DNA of 21,683 nt. Source: a virus. The stretch is taken from the IMG/VR virus record IMGVR_UViG_3300028388_000008, positions 1 to 21,683 of that record; one strand, written 5' to 3'. The notes beneath the pieces were generated by a model. That model saw only the letters and a list, made by a program, of their open reading frames with translations. It was not told the origin of the DNA and searched no databases. The stretch's first letter is position 1; each line of letters begins with the position of its first letter. The position numbers and the translations under genes are program-made. Shown piece by piece: positions 7,150-20,378 of this stretch.

Positions 7150-7683
7150 ATGTGTGATCCCATCCTTGGCGCAATTATGGTAGGTACGCAGGTAATAGGC
7201 GGCATGCAGCAAAAGAGTGCGGCAAACAGTGCTGCTGATGCGGCTCAAGCGGCCGGAGAGTTTAATGCTGAAATCATTGAAAGAGACATTGACCTACTTG
7301 AGCGCCAAAGAAGCATCGTCAATGAAAACTTTCTTGTCAGCCAAAATCGCGCAGCCTCTTTCTTTGAGAGAGACGTTCAAGGCACAGCCCGTGCCGGATT
7401 TGGATTTGCCGGAGTTGATATGAGCATGGGGACGCCGCTTGAGGTTCTGCGCGACAACGCGCGAGAGTTTGACTACGAGCAGGCTGTCAATGAGTTTAAT
7501 AACAAGATTACGAACCTCCAAATCTCTGATGCTCAAGAAGAGGCAGAGCTTAATGCACAGCTGTCACGCATGCAGGGTGGCGCGTCTGCTGCTGGACTTC
7601 GTGCGCAAGGCACAGGAAGTCTTATTCGCAGCTTTGGTGCGGCGGCTGGTTCTGCCTATGAAACAGGATTATTTGCCCAATGA
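7150..7683 (+). CDS. Internal virion protein, T7 gp14-like (ejection protein)
   Basis: The 177-residue product starts MCDPILGAIMVGTQVIGGMQ, a hydrophobic, Gly-rich segment (about residues 5-18) that may insert into membrane, followed by a long Ala/Glu/Asn/Gln-rich helical region (about 20-145) and a Gly/Ala-rich end. 'QKSAANSAADAAQAAGEFNA' and the Q-x-AASFFERDVQGTAR pattern are typical of gp14-like internal virion proteins of podophages, which after ejection build the outer-membrane part of the DNA channel. Start ATG 7150 has GAGG at 7139-7142 as its ribosome binding site. The stop overlaps the next start (ATGA 7680-7683). No enzyme motif was found. Confidence 0.78.
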   Translation: MCDPILGAIMVGTQVIGGMQQKSAANSAADAAQAAGEFNAEIIERDIDLLERQRSIVNENFLVSQNRAASFFERDVQGTARAGFGFAGVDMSMGTPLEVLRDNAREFDYEQAVNEFNNKITNLQISDAQEEAELNAQLSRMQGGASAAGLRAQGTGSLIRSFGAAAGSAYETGLFAQ

Positions 7684-9437
7684 GAATCCCCGTATATCGC
7701 TCTCAAACTCAGGCCACGAGCCAAGCGCCAGGCCGAAGCATTCAGTCTAGAATGCGTGGCGATCTGCTCGCGCAGGCTGAACTCCGCAAAGGCGATGTCG
7801 GTGCAGCTGCCTTGGAAACTATTGGCGCTTATGCAAAGATGCGTTATGGCGCAGAGCAAGAGGTTTTGCTGAGCGAGGCGTTACTCACGGCTGAAGAGGG
7901 CTTGCGCACAGCGGCGCGAGATCTTTCTAAGTCTAGCCGACTGTCAGATGTGTTCGGTGGTGAAAACCTCTGGTCGCAGCAGTCTGAAGAGATTAAGCAA
8001 ACAGCTCTTGAGGCGATTGGCAAGAACCGATTTACCACGCAAAAATTTAATGATCGCTTTGGTCAAATGGAGCTGACCACTAGGTTTTCTCTAAAGAATA
8101 GCGTGGATGCTAGAATGGAGGCCATGGCCCAGAGAGCTATGGCGACACGTCAGAATAATGCTGTTGCGAATTTGTCTGAGCTAGGGATTGGCAATTCTGA
8201 TGAGATGATTGCTAATTACAATGCCACAATTTACGGCATTGAGGTCGATCAAGGCACCGGCGTAAAGCAAGGTCGCTATAACCCTGAACTAATTAATCAG
8301 GGCAACATTAAGATGAAGGCTGCAATTGCTCAAAACGTAGTTCTAGGCGTGGTTGGCTCAGATCCTCTTTTGGCAGCTCAATTGATTGATGCTTTGGAGT
8401 ATCAAGATATTCTAGACTCAGGGGCTGATCCTTCTGCTTATGGTGAGCCACCTCAAATCCCAGGCGCTGCTTATGCTTTGCATACGCTACGAAACATACC
8501 TCGTGGCGATGCTGTGGAGATTGTTGCCAAGTCAATCACGCAGGCAAACAAGTTTGCAAAATTGCGTCAGGATCAGGAAGAGCGTCGAGAGGCGGCATTT
8601 GATGATGCAATTGTTGCAGCCACAAATCGCTTTGAGTTTTTCGATGATCCATATGCTTTGTATGATGCATCTGAATTAACTAGATTTATCCCTGGCATTA
8701 GTAGCATTATGCCAGAAGGGGCTGAGGAGGTTAGTGGCCAAGAGGCTCGTGACCTTATCGTGGACTTTCTAAACACACTCAATGCAATCACACCGTCGAT
8801 AAAAGATCGTTTTGAAAAGGCAAGTGAGATTAGTCCAGAGTCTGCATTCCCCGCAAAATCTGACGACCGTGTTTTCACAAACCTTAGCATCCGCGCAACA
8901 AACGGCACCTTGACATATGAAGAGGTTGATTCCGAAAGGTTCCTTTTATCTAGACCGGACTACCTATCACTGCGTAATCGTGTAGGCACTGAGATTGATC
9001 AATCTGTTTCTGATCAGCTGGCAATAGCTAAGTCTGTATTTCGATATGATGAACTATCTGCTCTTGACCCTGAGCTTGGCCAGGCGTCAAAGGCCGCATA
9101 CTTCAGTGTTGAATCAGAGCTGTTGCAAACTGTTCAGGATCGCAAAACACAGGGCAATCCTATGATCCCTGTTGAGATCCAAGAGTACACAAAAAGTTTA
9201 ATTGATAAGCAGCAGACATTCTTTGAGCAGCAGGCCCGTTTAGACTTTGAGGGATACCTTGATATTCAAAATATGAGACTTGGCGCAACTGGATTGGATA
9301 TTTCTCCTGAAGATCCATTAGGCTCTCTTGATGATTGGTATAACAGTCTCAGCCCCGAAGACCAGGCTAGACAGACCGCCAACTACTCTCGCATCAAAAA
9401 CAACTTAAAAACCTATAAATCAAAAGGGGTGTTCTAA
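7680..9437 (+). CDS. Internal virion protein, T7 gp15-like (ejection protein)
   Basis: The 585-residue product starts MRIPVYRSQTQATSQAPGRS and is soluble and almost wholly helical, with many Glu/Ala/Leu/Arg segments (for example LLSEALLTAEEGLRTAARDL and MEAMAQRAMATRQNN). Similar long helical proteins starting with a short R-x-P segment sit between the gp14-like and gp16-like genes in many podophages and marine phages, and the position here is the same. The gp15 role is to form a tube across the periplasm after ejection; the role is inferred from order, length and composition. No catalytic motif is visible. Start overlaps the previous stop (ATGA) and the stop overlaps the next start (TAATG, 9435-9439). 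Confidence 0.72.
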   Translation: MRIPVYRSQTQATSQAPGRSIQSRMRGDLLAQAELRKGDVGAAALETIGAYAKMRYGAEQEVLLSEALLTAEEGLRTAARDLSKSSRLSDVFGGENLWSQQSEEIKQTALEAIGKNRFTTQKFNDRFGQMELTTRFSLKNSVDARMEAMAQRAMATRQNNAVANLSELGIGNSDEMIANYNATIYGIEVDQGTGVKQGRYNPELINQGNIKMKAAIAQNVVLGVVGSDPLLAAQLIDALEYQDILDSGADPSAYGEPPQIPGAAYALHTLRNIPRGDAVEIVAKSITQANKFAKLRQDQEERREAAFDDAIVAATNRFEFFDDPYALYDASELTRFIPGISSIMPEGAEEVSGQEARDLIVDFLNTLNAITPSIKDRFEKASEISPESAFPAKSDDRVFTNLSIRATNGTLTYEEVDSERFLLSRPDYLSLRNRVGTEIDQSVSDQLAIAKSVFRYDELSALDPELGQASKAAYFSVESELLQTVQDRKTQGNPMIPVEIQEYTKSLIDKQQTFFEQQARLDFEGYLDIQNMRLGATGLDISPEDPLGSLDDWYNSLSPEDQARQTANYSRIKNNLKTYKSKGVF

Positions 9438-12046
9438 TGGCTGATTTGATTATGGGTAACACGGACGACGAAGTTGAAAAATACGAAGAGGCTTACCTTA
9501 TTGCAAGCAATCCACCTCCTATGGATTCAGCAAAGTCCAAGACGCTAAACTTCAATCGCCGCACTGGTAAGAATGACGTTCTGTTGCCCCTGTCGTCTGG
9601 CGGTTATGCCAAGGTTGGTGAAGAGCCTATTCCTCGTGTTGATCAGGTGAAAAAGTATGCGAGAGAGCTGCAAGGCATGAATGCGCCATTTGACATGGCA
9701 GATTATGACGCGGCGGGATTTACAGCGGAAGAAGTGCAGGCAGCGGGAATTATGCCAGTACAGGCTCCTACTTCTGGACGAAGTGAGCCAATGACTGAGG
9801 GTGAAACTCTTATTGCTCAGCGGCAGGGTAATGAGATACTGCAAGCAGGCCCAAATCAATCTTTGTTTGAAGGTGCTGTTTCAGAGGTCACAAAGGGCTT
9901 GGCTCGTGGTGGTCTTGTGAGGCCGTCACAATTTTTAAAAGAAAATCTAAATGTGTACGATCCTTTGGTTTTTCAGATCGTAGACCCTGTAACGGGGGAA
10001 TTTGATCCTCAATTAAAAATAGTTAGCAGAGAAGAAAAGGCTGAAATTGATCGAAAGATAGAAGCAGGCGAAATGCCGTATGCGGTTGACTTTGAGCGTT
10101 TAGTTGAGTCAGATCCTGAGTCCGGTGCGGGAGCGCAGGTAGCTGGTAGTTTCTCACAGTTTCTAGGCGCGTTTGCGGGTGTTGGTAAATTGTTCCGTTT
10201 AGGCAGCGGTGCTACCGGAATGGCCACTCAAGGCGTGGCTGCTGATTTCTTAGCGTTTAGAGGTGACGAGGGTCGGCTTACTGATTTGCTTTTGGAAATG
10301 GGCGTTCCAGAAGGTCGAGTAACAAATTTCTTTAAAACTGATCCAAACGATCCTGATTATGTTGGAAGGTTTAAAACTGCCTTAGAAGGTACTTTATTTG
10401 GAGCAGCCCTTGCGCCTGTATTGATTGGTATGGGTAAAACTTTTAGGGCCATTAAAGATGGGGACGTCGTCCCAGAAGCTGCACGAGATGCTGTTGCAAA
10501 AGGTAAAGATGCACTTGGCAACGCATTCTTAAAGCAGGTTCAAAACGCAGAGGCACGCATTGCAGAGCGTGGCACAGGCACAACGATGTTCAGCAATCCT
10601 GTCGGCCCCGTGGTGGACAGAGGGTTGGTGGCTGCGGGGCGTTTAGCGGATATGCTTGAAGACAAGTATCCTGACGTAACTTTAGATATTTCAGGTGATG
10701 CCGAAAAGGGTTACGAATTAAGTCGCATTGTAATTCCTGATAATCAACGCAGTAAAGGCATGGGGACAAAAGTCATGCAAGATGTGGTTGATATGGCTGA
10801 TGAGCAAGGTGCAAGAATATCCCTTACGCCAGACACATCATTTGGTGGATCAAGCGTTTCAAGGTTAAAGGACTTTTACAAGCGCTTTGGGTTCGTTGAG
10901 AATAAAGGCAAGAACAAAGACTTTTCTACACGCAACACGATGTATCGTGACCCACAGGAGCCTAAGGTTGCACCAGATCCCGTCGAGGACATATCGTTTG
11001 TAGAGCCAAAGCAGGTTGAGGCTCCAACAGATGAAAAACGTGGCATCATCGCGTTTCATGGGTCTGGCGCAGACTTTGACAAGTTTGAATTGAGTAAGAT
11101 CGGAACTGGAGAGCAAGCGCAAGCCTTTGGTCACGGGCTTTACTTTACAGACAGTGAAGACATTGCTGAGTTCTATCGTCAATCAGTTCGTGGTCGCCAA
11201 GACTTATCACTTGGTTATGAAGTCTCATACAAAGGCAACAAGGTTTCTGACCTTGGAGATACACCTTTAGCAGAAGTGCAGCCGTATGAAAACGCTGCTA
11301 TCAATAAGATTGCGGACAACATAAGCAAAGTCACCACAATGGCCACAAAAGACTTGCCGCAAAGCGAACTAGTTCAACTGGCTAAAGACAAGGCAATCAA
11401 GACGCTTGAAGGTGAGATTAAGAGAACCGCAGAAAGAACATCAGGCAGTATGTTCGATGAACTTACTGACTTGATTGGAAACAGCTTGGATGATGAACTG
11501 AAGGCGCTCCAAGCAATTGATCCAAACGATGTTAGTTTTGCAGAGGGCAAAAAGTATCAGGTTCGCCTAGATGTTTCCCCAGAGGATCTGCTGAATTGGG
11601 ACATGCCTTTTGATAAGCAGACGCCAACAGCCCAACGCGCCATTCTGAAGACTGCTGATGAAATCACTTTGGACGATGCAATGAACCTGGGTGTTGATGT
11701 TTTCGATGCGCCATACAACGGAGATGAAGCAGCGGCGCTTGATGCGGCCAAGAAGATACTGCTTGATGACTTTTCCGTGAACCGTTTCTTAAACACCTGG
11801 TCTGCCATCCGTGGATCTGATAACGCTGGTGAAGAGTTACTTGCTAAGAACGGATTGAAGGGCATCACATACAAAGCGGATCAAGGCCCGACAGCAAGAG
11901 GCCCGATGGCAAGAGACGCGTCTGCTGGCGGCCCAAGCAATTACGTCATCTTCGACGATAAGCTGATTAACATTATGAAGAAGTATGGCATTGTTGGCCC
12001 TGTCGCCGTTAGCGCAATGGCTTCTCAAGAGCAGGAAGAGATATAA
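9437..12046 (+). CDS. Large ejection-type protein with GNAT-like and ADP-ribosyltransferase (polyvalent-type) domains
   Basis: 869 residues, in the place where T7 has part of gp16. The N-terminal third is charged, with two Gly/Ala-rich hydrophobic stretches (about 237-275 and 318-340) that could touch membrane. Residues about 410-510 look like a GNAT acetyltransferase: the acetyl-CoA loop Q437-R-S-K-G-M-G443 is the Q/R-x-x-G-x-G pattern, and FYKRFGF (about 480-486) is the usual C-terminal GNAT element. From about 535 to the end is an ADP-ribosyltransferase of the polyvalent-protein type (ART-PolyVal): His541 in FHGS, Tyr569 in GHGLYF, YQVRLDVSPEDLLNWDMPFD (about 707-726), Glu799/Glu800 as the candidate third catalytic residue, and NYVIFDDKLINIM (835-847). 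No lytic transglycosylase motif was seen. Likely packaged and ejected with DNA. The ART identification is firm; the GNAT call is good; activity and target are unknown. Confidence 0.85.
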   Translation: MADLIMGNTDDEVEKYEEAYLIASNPPPMDSAKSKTLNFNRRTGKNDVLLPLSSGGYAKVGEEPIPRVDQVKKYARELQGMNAPFDMADYDAAGFTAEEVQAAGIMPVQAPTSGRSEPMTEGETLIAQRQGNEILQAGPNQSLFEGAVSEVTKGLARGGLVRPSQFLKENLNVYDPLVFQIVDPVTGEFDPQLKIVSREEKAEIDRKIEAGEMPYAVDFERLVESDPESGAGAQVAGSFSQFLGAFAGVGKLFRLGSGATGMATQGVAADFLAFRGDEGRLTDLLLEMGVPEGRVTNFFKTDPNDPDYVGRFKTALEGTLFGAALAPVLIGMGKTFRAIKDGDVVPEAARDAVAKGKDALGNAFLKQVQNAEARIAERGTGTTMFSNPVGPVVDRGLVAAGRLADMLEDKYPDVTLDISGDAEKGYELSRIVIPDNQRSKGMGTKVMQDVVDMADEQGARISLTPDTSFGGSSVSRLKDFYKRFGFVENKGKNKDFSTRNTMYRDPQEPKVAPDPVEDISFVEPKQVEAPTDEKRGIIAFHGSGADFDKFELSKIGTGEQAQAFGHGLYFTDSEDIAEFYRQSVRGRQDLSLGYEVSYKGNKVSDLGDTPLAEVQPYENAAINKIADNISKVTTMATKDLPQSELVQLAKDKAIKTLEGEIKRTAERTSGSMFDELTDLIGNSLDDELKALQAIDPNDVSFAEGKKYQVRLDVSPEDLLNWDMPFDKQTPTAQRAILKTADEITLDDAMNLGVDVFDAPYNGDEAAALDAAKKILLDDFSVNRFLNTWSAIRGSDNAGEELLAKNGLKGITYKADQGPTARGPMARDASAGGPSNYVIFDDKLINIMKKYGIVGPVAVSAMASQEQEEI

Positions 12047-12047
12047 T

Positions 12048-15000
12048 ATGGCAATTGATCCAAACCAACTAGCACAAGAGCAAGAGCAGCGCCAACGTAT
12101 TGATGCTGGTGGCGCACCGACTGAGTTTTCAAAAGGCCCAGAGCAAGACAGCTCCATCCAATTGGCGGGTGGCGCTACTCGCGCAATGAGAGAACTTCTG
12201 AACCGCTTGGGTGATGCAAGGAAGCCACAGGTTGATGTCAGCCCTGATCTAGAAGGTTCGGCTGCTGTTCAGCCGCAGCGGGTTCCTACGCCACAAGAGG
12301 CGGGTCTTGTGCCGGACACAGGCCAGTTCTCAGAGACGCAAACAAAAAGGCAACTTGCCCCACAAGTTCTCAGCCCTGAAGGCGTTGCCGAGTTTGAGCA
12401 GCGTGGGCTAAAGGCAGCCCCTCTAGAAGAGGTGAACGTCATTAAGGACGCCAATGAGGCTCTAGAGGATCAACAGAAGGCTCTCACGATTGAAGACGTG
12501 AAGAGCCAGGCTAACAAAGCTTTAACGGCAGAGGCGAAGGGTACAACGCCTGAGTCTGCTTTGGTTGACCCTGAGTTGGCCGATCAAGCCTTGACCATGC
12601 TGGAACAGTCTGACGCAAATATTAAGACCCTGGCTGACGGCGGTGACTTTAATTTTGATTACATCAATTCGCCTGATGAGGTGAAGAAGACAATTACAGC
12701 ACTGTCAGAAGTTTACAGCGATCAAACCAATGCGGCAAAGCGTGGATATATATCCAATGAGGTTACGGCGCAAAAGGCTGCTGAAATAACGGCAGACGAA
12801 ATTGGACTTACAAAAAGTTTGCTTAAGCGCAAGGTCGGCGACGGATCTCTAAACGCCGAGACGATGCTTGCAGCTCGTGAGCTTTTGGTTCGCAGCGCGC
12901 CTCGCTTGACAGATTTGGCGCAAAAGATTCAAGGCGGCACGGCAAATGCGACAGATCGCTTGCAGTTTCGTCGCCAGATGGCAATCCACGCTGGCATTCA
13001 GGCGCAGGTAAAAGGTGCGCAAACAGAAGCAGCTCGAACGCTACAGTCGTTTCAAATACCTGTCGGTGGTGAGATGAGCGCTGTTGAGCAGGCTCGTGAG
13101 GCTCAGCGTCTGCTGCAAGAAAGCGGCGGTGCCGATGTTGTAGATGACATGGCTGCAAAACTTCTTACTGCCAAAGAGAAGAACGGCATGAAGGGTGTAA
13201 ATACTTTTGCAAAAGGCGGTTGGAGAGCAAAGACACGTCAGGCTCTCTCTGAAGCCTATTTAGCAGGCTTGCTTTCTAATCCAGCAACGCAGGTAAAAAA
13301 CGTCGTTGGTTCGGCTGCTTTCATGATGTACCAGCTTCCGGCCGAAACAATTGCAGGATTTTATGGAGCAGTAATTCGGTCTGGGCGCACAGCTATGAAC
13401 CTGCCCATCAGCCCTGATCAAGCTTATGTGAATGACTCCATGCTTCGCTTTAAGGGATGGATGGATAGCTATAAAGATGCGATGAGAGCTTCGTCCATTG
13501 CCTGGAACACAGAAGTTCCTGCATCTGAAGCAAGCCGTCTTGATGTTGAGACGTATGCGTCAATCACTGGTAAAAGCGATAGCGTGCTTCAAAATTCCAT
13601 TGATTATTTTGGGAAAGCTACTCGCATTCCATTCCGTCTTTTGCTTGGCGCTGATGAGTTTATGAAAACAATCTCACAGCGTGGTGAGCTTTATGTGCAG
13701 GCGAATCAGCGCTATCAGCAGGCTATTCGTGAAGGTAAGACCGTTCAAGAGGCTCAAGATGAGGCGGGTATGCTTCTCCTTGATCCTCGTGCTGTTTCAG
13801 AAGAATTAGATTACAAAGCAAAGTATGACACACTGCAAAGTGATCTAGGCGGGTTTGGCAAAGTAACAGGTGCAATTCAACGGTTTGACATTGCTGGCAT
13901 CCCTGTTGGTCGTTACGTCCTTCCATTTGCCACAGCACCGACAAACTCATTCCTTCGCACAGCAGAGTTTATGGGTATCAACCCAACGGTTTATGCAGAC
14001 ATTGCCGGCAAGAATGGTGCAAAGGCACAGCAGATGGCAATGGGGCGACTGTCGGTTGGCGGTGCAACAATGGGGATTGTTGCTGACTATGCGATGAAAG
14101 GCCAAATTACTGGAGGCATGCCAAGCGATCCTAGCATTAGGGATTCTTTACCGCCAGGTTGGCAGCCTTACAGCTTCGTTGTTAGAGCTGAAGGCTTTCC
14201 AGAAGATATGCCCTTGTATGACGCATATGGCAGACCCAATGGCCCTTTGAAATATGTTAGCTACGCAGGGTATGAACCTGTCGGCGGGATTATTGCTTTA
14301 ACAGCAAACACTGTTCAGAGTATGCACAAAACGCGAGATCCTGAAGTCAGAAACAATTTGGCTGCTGCCTCAATTGGCTCCGTTGTTGATTACTACAAAG
14401 AGCTTCCAATGCTCCAAGGCTTGTCGGATGTAGTGTTTGCCCTTGAGTATGGGAATTTTGACCAGCTATTCCGAGGCCCAGCCGAGGCGGCCACAATTGC
14501 AGGTGTTCCAAGCCCAGCTAGCGCGTTGCAAAGATCATTTGGCCGAATGCAAGATCCTACGGTTTTGCGGCCAAGGGGTGATTTAGAATATTATACCGAG
14601 CAAGATATTCTAGAAACGCGGCCAGATGGATCTTACAAGTTTTCTTTGCCAGATGGATCGCCAGACTACAGAATGGTCGGCATGGTTAAAAATGATATGA
14701 CCACGCAGATTGCATCAACGATGCGAAAATTAAGCGCATATCAATCTAAGGACAGTTTCTTCCGTGATGAATATGACCGGAACGCTCCTGTGTATGACAC
14801 ACTAGGGAATGTTGTTGGGTCAAATGATGTAAGCTTGGCAACTAAACCTGGCTTGGCGATCTTTAACAACTTGAGCGGAGTGCGCATTCGTGAAGGTGAA
14901 GAGGTTCCAGAGTTTCAGCAAGAGCTGATGCGATTGACGGCAATGACAGGAAAGTGGCCGCTATCAAATCCTGATTCAAAAGAGGGCATCCGTTTGTCAG

Positions 15001-15290
15001 CAGGTGCGCAGTCTGACTTAGTCAATATTGCTAAAAACGAAACGCCCCTTGACTTCCCTCGCGTTGGTGAATTGACGTTCAAGGAAGCCCTGACCGCTAT
15101 GACGACAACAACGTCAAACTCTTTGGGGCGCACTTACAATAAAGCAAGTGACAAAGAGCGTGTGACAATGTTAAAAGAACTCAACAAGAAGTATATAGAC
15201 GCAGCCTTTGTCGTTTTGCTACAGAACCCAAGGTATGCTAATATGGCCCAAGCATATGAAGATTTGCAGCGCTTAAAGGATGAACAATGA
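12048..15290 (+). CDS. Very large ejection-type protein with polyvalent-associated, membrane-linked domain
   Basis: 1080 residues. The start is placed at ATG 12048 (MAIDPNQLAQ), ten bases after AGGAAG at 12033-12038 and two bases after the previous stop; the frame is open back to 11985 but that extension overlaps the ART domain's end and lacks support. The N-terminal ~380 residues are charged and helical. From about residue 390 a conserved-looking block has EAYLAGLLSNPATQVKNVVG, a hydrophobic stretch to about 445, then LLGADEFMKTISQRGELYVQ and a helix with A-x-x-EGKTVQEA. This 'LLS-P-T...N..G' plus 'ADEF-K....R.ELY..A' arrangement occurs in phage and prophage polyvalent proteins as a large membrane-associated domain (one of the LPD families; which one I cannot say). 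Further hydrophobic segments lie near 666-685 and 741-757. It probably fills the gp16 inner-membrane channel role. Confidence 0.7.
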   Translation: MAIDPNQLAQEQEQRQRIDAGGAPTEFSKGPEQDSSIQLAGGATRAMRELLNRLGDARKPQVDVSPDLEGSAAVQPQRVPTPQEAGLVPDTGQFSETQTKRQLAPQVLSPEGVAEFEQRGLKAAPLEEVNVIKDANEALEDQQKALTIEDVKSQANKALTAEAKGTTPESALVDPELADQALTMLEQSDANIKTLADGGDFNFDYINSPDEVKKTITALSEVYSDQTNAAKRGYISNEVTAQKAAEITADEIGLTKSLLKRKVGDGSLNAETMLAARELLVRSAPRLTDLAQKIQGGTANATDRLQFRRQMAIHAGIQAQVKGAQTEAARTLQSFQIPVGGEMSAVEQAREAQRLLQESGGADVVDDMAAKLLTAKEKNGMKGVNTFAKGGWRAKTRQALSEAYLAGLLSNPATQVKNVVGSAAFMMYQLPAETIAGFYGAVIRSGRTAMNLPISPDQAYVNDSMLRFKGWMDSYKDAMRASSIAWNTEVPASEASRLDVETYASITGKSDSVLQNSIDYFGKATRIPFRLLLGADEFMKTISQRGELYVQANQRYQQAIREGKTVQEAQDEAGMLLLDPRAVSEELDYKAKYDTLQSDLGGFGKVTGAIQRFDIAGIPVGRYVLPFATAPTNSFLRTAEFMGINPTVYADIAGKNGAKAQQMAMGRLSVGGATMGIVADYAMKGQITGGMPSDPSIRDSLPPGWQPYSFVVRAEGFPEDMPLYDAYGRPNGPLKYVSYAGYEPVGGIIALTANTVQSMHKTRDPEVRNNLAAASIGSVVDYYKELPMLQGLSDVVFALEYGNFDQLFRGPAEAATIAGVPSPASALQRSFGRMQDPTVLRPRGDLEYYTEQDILETRPDGSYKFSLPDGSPDYRMVGMVKNDMTTQIASTMRKLSAYQSKDSFFRDEYDRNAPVYDTLGNVVGSNDVSLATKPGLAIFNNLSGVRIREGEEVPEFQQELMRLTAMTGKWPLSNPDSKEGIRLSAGAQSDLVNIAKNETPLDFPRVGELTFKEALTAMTTTTSNSLGRTYNKASDKERVTMLKELNKKYIDAAFVVLLQNPRYANMAQAYEDLQRLKDEQ

Positions 15291-19238: not shown

Positions 19239-19537
19239 ACTTGGACATGGAAATGCTCACGCCAATTATTGTGGCGCTTGTTGGTGCGGGGGGCCTATGG
19301 CAATGGCTCTCAACGAAATCAAAGAATGCTCACGAACGGGCGATGCACGAGCGTGAACAGCATGGCGAGTTTAACGACACGCTCCGCGCTCAGGTCGATC
19401 GCTTGAGTGAAAAGCTAGATGCAGTGATTGCCGACAAAGAGCAACTCTTGCGCGAGATGAGTGACATGCGTGCCGCTCTTGCCGAGGCCAACGCTACCAT
19501 TAAACACCTTGAAGAAATGCTGCGGAATAAAACATGA
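19235..19537 (+). CDS. Membrane-anchored coiled-coil protein, possible spanin-like
   Basis: 100 residues: one N-terminal hydrophobic helix at about 8-25 (LTPIIVALVGAGGLWQWL), then a basic stretch and a long coiled coil at about 45-97 (LRAQVDRLSEKLDAVIADKE). An inner-membrane anchor with a periplasmic coiled coil is the layout of Rz-type inner-membrane spanins, and the location next to holin and endolysin fits. The topology is uncertain, and no matching outer-membrane lipoprotein was found. A similar short TM-coiled-coil protein exists in other marine phage lysis clusters without a proven role. Starts and stops overlap neighbours (ATGA 19235 and ATGA 19534). Confidence 0.62.
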   Translation: MNLDMEMLTPIIVALVGAGGLWQWLSTKSKNAHERAMHEREQHGEFNDTLRAQVDRLSEKLDAVIADKEQLLREMSDMRAALAEANATIKHLEEMLRNKT

Positions 19538-19926
19538 TACAAGCACTCATCGGCCCAGTGACGGGCTTGCTCGACAAGTTCATCGAGGACAAAGACCAGA
19601 AAGCCGCTCTGGCGCACGACGTGGCCACAATGGCCGCAAAGCACGCTCACGATGCGGCAATGGCTCAGATCGACGTGAACAAGACCGAAGCGCAGCATCG
19701 TTCAGTTTGGGTCGCAGGGTGGCGCCCCGCGTGTGGTTGGCTTTGCGCCGCAGCGATGGGTGCGCACTTCGTGATCTTTCCAACGGTTGCAGTGATCGCC
19801 GCATCTCTTGGCCATGAAGTAACATTTCCAGAGTTTGACATGGGCAGCTTGATGACTGTACTACTTGGGATGCTTGGCCTCGGTGGCCTTCGCAGCTTTG
19901 AGAAAGCCAAAGGGGTGACGAAATGA
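19534..19926 (+). CDS. Holin of the GTA 3TM family
   Basis: 130 residues. A soluble Lys/Ala/His-rich helix fills residues 1-55, followed by GWRPACGWLCAAAM (62-75), a hydrophobic stretch to about 91, a short loop EVTFPEFD, then LMTVLLGMLGLGGLRSFEKA (106-125). The GWRP...GW and LLGMLGLGGLRSFEK elements are diagnostic of the GTA-type 3TM holin family found in gene-transfer agents of Rhodobacterales and in many phages. The protein would make the inner-membrane lesion that lets the endolysin out. It sits immediately before the M15 peptidase (ATGA overlap at 19923). Confidence 0.88.
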   Translation: MIQALIGPVTGLLDKFIEDKDQKAALAHDVATMAAKHAHDAAMAQIDVNKTEAQHRSVWVAGWRPACGWLCAAAMGAHFVIFPTVAVIAASLGHEVTFPEFDMGSLMTVLLGMLGLGGLRSFEKAKGVTK

Positions 19927-20378
19927 CATTCAAATTATCAAACCGCAGCCTCAGCAAATTAGAGGGCGTCGATGAGCGCCTCGTTGCTGTTGCCAAGAGC
20001 GCCATCACGCGCACGAAAGTGGACTTCGGCGTGATTTGTGGACTCCGTACCATCGAAGAGCAGCGCGAGCTTGTGGCCAAGGGCGCAAGCCAAACGATGA
20101 AGTCAAAGCATCTCGAAGGGCTTGCGATCGATGTCATGGCATTCATTGGCTCTCGTGGATCTTGGGAACTCAATCTCTATGATGACATTGGCGATGCGAT
20201 AATCGCCGCTGCTAAAGAGATCGATGTGCCGTTGCGCTGGGGTGCAGCGTGGCATGTGAACGACGTGCGGGAATGGGATGGTACATGCGAGGATCTTATG
20301 AACTCGTATATTGACACTCGCAGGGCAGAAGGTCGTCGACCATTTATCGACGCCCCGCATTGGGAGGTGTGTGAATAA
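19923..20378 (+). CDS. M15-family endolysin (L-Ala-D-Glu/D-Ala-type peptidase)
   Basis: 151 residues. The metal-site pattern of M15 peptidases is present: Arg42 in GLRTIEEQ, S61-K-H63-L-E-G-L-A-I-D70 for the first two zinc ligands (His63, Asp70), and D143-A-P-H146 for the base and third ligand, as in E-x-x-H of phage endolysins. The enzyme cuts peptide bonds in the peptidoglycan stem, causing lysis. WGAAW (106-110) normally lies close before the last motif; here about 30 residues intervene (NDVREWDGTCEDLMNSYIDT, then RRAEGRR), an insertion shared by some alphaproteobacterial phage forms. There is no signal peptide, so it depends on the holin next to it. Stop overlaps the next start as TAATG. 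Confidence 0.9.
   Translation: MTFKLSNRSLSKLEGVDERLVAVAKSAITRTKVDFGVICGLRTIEEQRELVAKGASQTMKSKHLEGLAIDVMAFIGSRGSWELNLYDDIGDAIIAAAKEIDVPLRWGAAWHVNDVREWDGTCEDLMNSYIDTRRAEGRRPFIDAPHWEVCE

What the first reader, a model, noticed from the sequence alone, without database searches (positions are those of the whole stretch)
9437..12046. Ejection-position virion protein carrying both a GNAT-like domain and an ADP-ribosyltransferase domain
Seen: Q437-R-S-K-G-M-G443 and FYKRFGF typical of GNAT enzymes, then His541 (FHGS), Tyr569 (GHGLYF), LLNWDMPFD, Glu799/800 and NYVIFDDKLI typical of the polyvalent-protein ART family. Known: polyvalent proteins are thought to enter the host with the DNA and act on host defences, and T4 injects the ART Alt. 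Inference: in this podophage the protein sits in the gp16-like ejection slot, with no transglycosylase motif, so a structural ejection protein has become a carrier of two protein-modifying enzymes. A roughly 230-residue helical region between the Tyr and Glu elements may hold a further module. This is the best candidate in the window for an undescribed host-takeover system.
Basis: partly seen in the sequence, partly recalled or inferred. Interest (0 to 1): 0.78.

Follow-up and report, generated by a model that had tools for sequence, protein, structure and literature searches.

The report
Swappable-effector protein in phage ejection operon
This phage gene encodes a conserved leader, found almost only among the phage's DNA-ejection genes, fused to two host-modifying enzyme domains (an acetyltransferase-like one and an ADP-ribosyltransferase), and in near-identical relatives the part behind the leader is replaced by quite different proteins, which suggests a slot for exchangeable weapons delivered with the phage DNA.

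Summary
In detail: ORF 9437-12046 (869 aa) contains a compact GNAT domain (about 405-512) and an ART-PolyVal-type ADP-ribosyltransferase domain (about 535-866). Window scores alone are below Pfam cut-offs, but 80 of 80 ART relatives and 36 of 36 GNAT-bearing members hit the families, and the AlphaFold/Foldseek model agrees. The proposed catalytic Glu799/800 is wrong: E occurs at these columns in 10% and 34% of 80 relatives. H541, Y569 and N835 are invariant and D840 is 88%, fitting the published H-Y-D clade. GNAT+ART in one polyvalent protein is already published (Iyer 2017). The 'gp16-like slot' is partly right: the ancestral internal virion protein D is split here. The middle of residues 1-395 matches its N-terminal part, and the next gene (12048-15290) its C-terminal part. 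What seems undescribed: in 67 of 67 related loci exactly one gene fills this slot, 66 with the same leader, while C-termini fall into at least 8 unrelated clusters (some with further domains, most unidentified) plus singletons. Phages 94-97% identical in DNA differ in cargo, with breaks near the leader end. The ART DNA is 93% identical in a P22-like phage. Best reading: virion-borne leader plus exchangeable effectors. Packaging, ejection and enzyme activity are inferred.

The parts
9437..12046 (+). Whole gene, 869 aa: leader + GNAT + ART
   Evidence: RBS AAAGGGG at 9423-9429
9437..9895 (+). Leader segment 1 (residues 1-153), confidently folded residues ~10-100
   Evidence: leader HMM hits in slot proteins; model pLDDT 93-95 over ~11-100
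9896..10408 (+). Leader middle (residues 154-324), Gly/Ala-rich helices homologous to the N-terminal part of internal virion protein D of marine Autographiviridae; highest hydropathy at 315-333
10409..10618 (+). Leader segment 3 (residues 325-394), conserved end of the leader; cargo swaps begin near here in relatives
10649..10972 (+). GNAT domain (residues ~405-512), motif QRSKGMG at 437-443 and FYKRFGF
11039..12034 (+). ART-PolyVal domain (residues ~535-866)
   Evidence: dN/dS about 0.1 against L003 and L001
11057..11059 (+). His541, strand-1 active-site residue
   Evidence: 80/80 in alignment
11141..11143 (+). Tyr569, strand-2 active-site residue
   Evidence: 80/80
11939..11956 (+). Strand-5 motif N835-Y-V-I-F-D840, candidate third active-site element
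   Evidence: N835 80/80, D840 88%; strand 834-838 in the model
11003..12003 (+). Stretch 93% identical in DNA to a P22-like phage (L003), a recent transfer
   Evidence: P22 portal and coat in L003
12048..15290 (+). Gene for the C-terminal part of the split internal virion protein D (1080 aa; first ATG is 12048, not 11985)
7680..9437 (+). gp15-position gene (585 aa), no family match of its own; assigned by position
7150..7683 (+). gp14-like internal virion protein gene
   Evidence: T7_gp14 E=1e-7, phrog_418

Best explanation
The gene encodes a virion-borne effector protein. Residues 1-395 are a conserved leader, part of which descends from the N-terminal half of the ejection protein internal virion protein D. 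Residues 405-866 are exchangeable cargo: here a compact GNAT and an H-Y-(N/D) ADP-ribosyltransferase. Proposed working (inferred): the leader docks the protein with the gp14/gp15/gp16C internal proteins, the protein leaves with them at the start of infection, and the cargo reaches the cytoplasm, where NAD+ and acetyl-CoA are available, and modifies host proteins before phage genes are expressed. Shown here by sequence: the domains, the conserved active-site residues, purifying selection, the one-gene slot, the shared leader and the cargo swapping. Not shown: presence in virions, ejection, catalysis and targets.
For: GNAT and ART families and folds; invariant H541/Y569/N835; dN/dS 0.10-0.11 in ART and about 0.06 in GNAT (dS of the GNAT comparison near saturation). 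Leader middle and next gene match two parts of internal virion protein D. 67 of 67 loci with the gp15-like and gp16C genes have one gene in the slot, 66 with the leader. At least 8 C-terminal clusters. Relatives 94-97% identical in DNA differ in cargo, breaks near the leader end and around the slot-gene end or gp16C start. At least 35 cargo changes on a 69-tip gp16C tree. A leader-only version (307 aa) exists.
Against: No proteomics. The leader model matches no solved fold, and no homology to T7 gp16 is detectable. Most other cargo clusters have no identified enzyme. Several ART genes in this slot, mostly in divergent loci, lack a detectable leader. The GNAT is compact and could be inactive. 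The swap survey uses metagenomic contigs, some of which could be misassembled.
Confidence: 0.62

Rival explanations
1. The protein is made late and acts inside the already infected cell or in assembly; its place in the operon only reflects late expression.
For: It lies in the structural operon, and no virion evidence exists here.
Against: The leader shares homology with a known ejection protein and was found almost only next to or fused with gp16C (79 of 83 hits; the other four are a contig that ends just after the leader, two ART-bearing slot-like loci and the P22-like L003) in loci mostly fetched by gp16C, ART or GNAT queries.
Confidence: 0.2
2. The C-terminal domains are structural or target-binding modules that kept the folds but lost catalysis; swapping reflects ejection-apparatus diversification rather than effectors.
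For: The GNAT is compact; no identified enzyme in most other clusters.
Against: H541, Y569 and N835 invariant in 80 relatives across unrelated contexts; dN/dS about 0.1; the same ART occurs beside terminase in a P22-like phage.
Confidence: 0.12
3. The cargo acts on competing phages or defends the phage's own DNA rather than taking over the host.
For: GNAT relatives occur in proteins annotated DarB-like antirestriction, and DarB protects injected DNA (PMC5512222).
Against: Neither a methylase nor a SWI2/SNF2 domain is present here.
Confidence: 0.2

Closest known systems
Polyvalent proteins of phages and conjugative elements (Iyer et al. 2017, PMC5512222)
   Same: Unlike enzymatic domains in one phage polypeptide near virion genes; ART of the H-Y-D clade; GNAT typically beside ART in the same polypeptide.
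   Different: Here the enzymes sit behind a conserved leader in a fixed one-gene slot of a split ejection protein, and are exchanged as C-terminal cassettes among near-identical phages; no mention of this slot was found in the passages searched.
MuF polymorphic toxins of temperate phages (PMC12226406, seen as abstract)
   Same: Conserved virion-associated N-terminus plus variable C-terminal activity.
   Different: The leader here is unrelated by the searches made to MuF, and no separate immunity gene lies between the slot gene and gp16C.
T7 gp14/gp15/gp16 ejection proteins (PMC8954989)
   Same: Same gene order, gp14-like protein and mosaic domain composition.
   Different: gp16 equivalent is split into two genes, no transglycosylase found, and T7 gp16 homology was not detectable.
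Hypervariable region of HTVC010P-type pelagiphages (PMC10504331)
   Same: Window capsid is about 70-72% identical to this group, and a hypervariable region with an internal virion protein is reported there.
   Different: The isolates inspected (HTVC010P, Lederberg) gave no leader hit; the reported Skadi region spans other genes.
T4 Alt
   Same: Injected virion-borne ART (PMC5512222).
   Different: Alt is of the R-S-E clade; this ART has H-Y-(N/D).

Membership tests
Polyvalent proteins (Iyer 2017) | Two or more biochemically unlike domains in one phage polypeptide | tested here: met
   GNAT and ART
Polyvalent proteins (Iyer 2017) | Encoded among virion genes | tested here: met
   Between gp14/gp15-position genes and gp16C, in a late structural operon
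Polyvalent proteins (Iyer 2017) | Packaged in the virion and injected | not testable with these tools
   Needs virion proteomics
ART-PolyVal (PF18760) / Tox-ART-HYD2 clade | Family profile match | tested here: met
   80 of 80 ART relatives match; window alone E=3e-6 to 7e-6, below the curated cut-off
ART-PolyVal (PF18760) / Tox-ART-HYD2 clade | H in strand 1, Y in strand 2, D in strand 5 | tested here: met
   H541 and Y569 invariant; D840 88% at the end of the last conserved strand, with N835 invariant at its start. Which of the two is the published D was not established
GNAT superfamily | (Q/R)xxGxG motif and GNAT fold | tested here: met
GNAT superfamily | Acetyltransferase activity | not testable with these tools
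   Needs assay
T7 gp16 family | Sequence homology to T7 gp16 | tested here: not met
   hhalign of leader and gp16C profiles with T7 gp16 gave no match
Internal virion protein D of marine Autographiviridae | Homology along the protein | tested here: met
   Leader middle and gp16C match separate parts of HTVC041P, HTVC011P and CRP-403 proteins
MuF polymorphic toxins | MuF N-terminal domain | tested here: not met
   No MuF match in Pfam

The most novel reading that the evidence does not exclude
The ejection operon of a group of short-tailed phages has a dedicated delivery slot: a conserved leader that carries interchangeable C-terminal effectors into the host with the ejection proteins, a virion-borne counterpart of polymorphic toxins.
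Probability: 0.55. Interest if true: 0.82.

Novelty: new variant of a known kind. Interest (0 to 1): 0.62.

Why it matters
If right, the cargo behind this leader is a ready list of candidate proteins that phages deliver before any phage gene is expressed, including several families with no known function. It also offers a testable leader for studying how proteins are loaded into and ejected from short-tailed phages, and an explanation for part of the variability seen in the virion-core region of such phages.

Tried and rejected
Programmed frameshift or overlap between 9437-12046 and the 11985 ORF: rejected, the downstream ATG is 12048, one base after the stop. Catalytic Glu799/800: rejected. 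A separate module between Tyr and Glu: rejected. PDB sequence searches with the GNAT-ART and gp16C profiles gave nothing; the leader profile hit only a short DotG-type repeat motif and chance matches. Leader fold search gave no match. The ART part gave no solved-structure match in the 50 rows shown, all GNATs or chance, though viral predicted ARTs matched. Genome scan with gp16C found one relative, an Azospirillum prophage with a transglycosylase-like stretch (by eye) in the gene before a single gp16-like gene. Literature searches for this slot found no description among the results read.

Full report
Observation. The ORF at 9437-12046 encodes 869 aa, preceded by AAAGGGG. The next gene starts at ATG 12048. 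Pfam gives ART-PolyVal (E 6.6e-6) and GNAT (E 5e-4) below their cut-offs for this protein alone; PHROGs add a strong match over 362-512.

Domains. Alignment of 80 viral relatives shows H541, Y569, Y580, G558, E559, Q562, G704, Y707, G809 and N835 at or near 100%, D840 at 88%, and E799/E800 at 10% and 34%. The published clade has H, Y and D in strands 1, 2 and 5 (PMC5512222); N835 and D840 bracket the strand predicted at 834-838. From memory, PARP1 has Glu at the N835 position; this is a lead, not a test. All 80 ART rows match PF18760 and 36 rows match GNAT. The model of 398-869 has mean pLDDT 84; its GNAT part matches Gcn5, Ard1 and RimI-type folds at probability near 1 though E-values are above 0.01; viral ART-PolyVal models match better. 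dN/dS is about 0.1 in ART and about 0.06 in GNAT, with dS near saturation in that comparison.

Surroundings. The window has T7_gp14-like, gp15-position and gp16C-like genes in order. The leader middle matches the N-terminal part of internal virion protein D of HTVC041P, CRP-403 and HTVC011P, and gp16C matches a later part; T7 gp16 was not detectably related. The capsid is about 70-72% identical to HTVC010P-type pelagiphages, but window GC is 46-50%, so the host is left open.

Slot survey. Of 67 loci with recognisable gp15 and gp16C genes, all 67 have one gene between them and 66 carry the leader. Last-230-residue tags form eight clusters of three or more and four singletons. One is ART (18 proteins), two have DUF7178, one has phrog_2563, one includes GNAT with an ART-like stretch by eye; the rest have no family found in the representatives scanned. 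The 12 singletons-plus-clusters are by BLAST on C-terminal tags and may merge with deeper searches.

Swapping. In contig pairs with 82-97% DNA identity on both sides, homology stops in the slot gene and resumes between its end and the start of gp16C. In most pairs the left break lies within about 40 residues of the leader end; L090/L091 breaks earlier, near residue 125. At gp16C identity of 90% or more, 16 of 28 pairs share a cargo cluster; at 70-90%, 10 of 54. The gp16C tree needs at least 35 cargo changes and 11 ART changes; this is a FastTree tree with some long branches. The window's ART DNA is 93% identical over 1001 bp to L003, a phage with P22-type portal and coat, where the gene lies just upstream of the terminase gene.

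Known. GNAT+ART polyvalent proteins and their presumed injection are published, and 44% of phage ARTs lie in packaging contexts (PMC9503650). A hypervariable region with an internal virion protein is reported for HTVC010P-type phages (PMC10504331). The leader-cargo slot was not found in the papers searched, which excludes most subscription journals.

Limits. All is sequence and model inference. Virion presence, ejection, topology, catalysis and targets were not tested.

Noticed in passing
L091:5869-7998: Slot protein with two GNAT stretches around an R..S..E ART-like stretch (by eye; phrog_2579 match).
   Followed up: partly
L123:3215-4135, L124:7078-7998: Slot gene of 307 aa consisting of the leader alone, without cargo.
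   Followed up: partly
L084:1379-5668: ART at the N-terminus of a single 1430-aa gp16-like protein, an unsplit arrangement.
   Followed up: partly
L003:9356-11443: P22-like phage GNAT-ART protein upstream of terminase that also shares a leader segment (about residues 88-155).
   Followed up: partly
L012:5023-6162: Leader plus the first ~30 residues of the ART, then the frame breaks; ART similarity goes on in another frame.
   Followed up: no
window 9683-9760: Leader motif DYDAAGFTAEEVQAAG resembling decapeptide repeats of DotG (PF25296, weak).
   Followed up: no
L251:2891-5101: Azospirillum brasilense prophage gene before a single gp16-like gene, with a transglycosylase-like stretch by eye.
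   Followed up: no
window 19534-20378: GTA-type holin followed by an M15 peptidase, the likely lysis genes.
   Followed up: no
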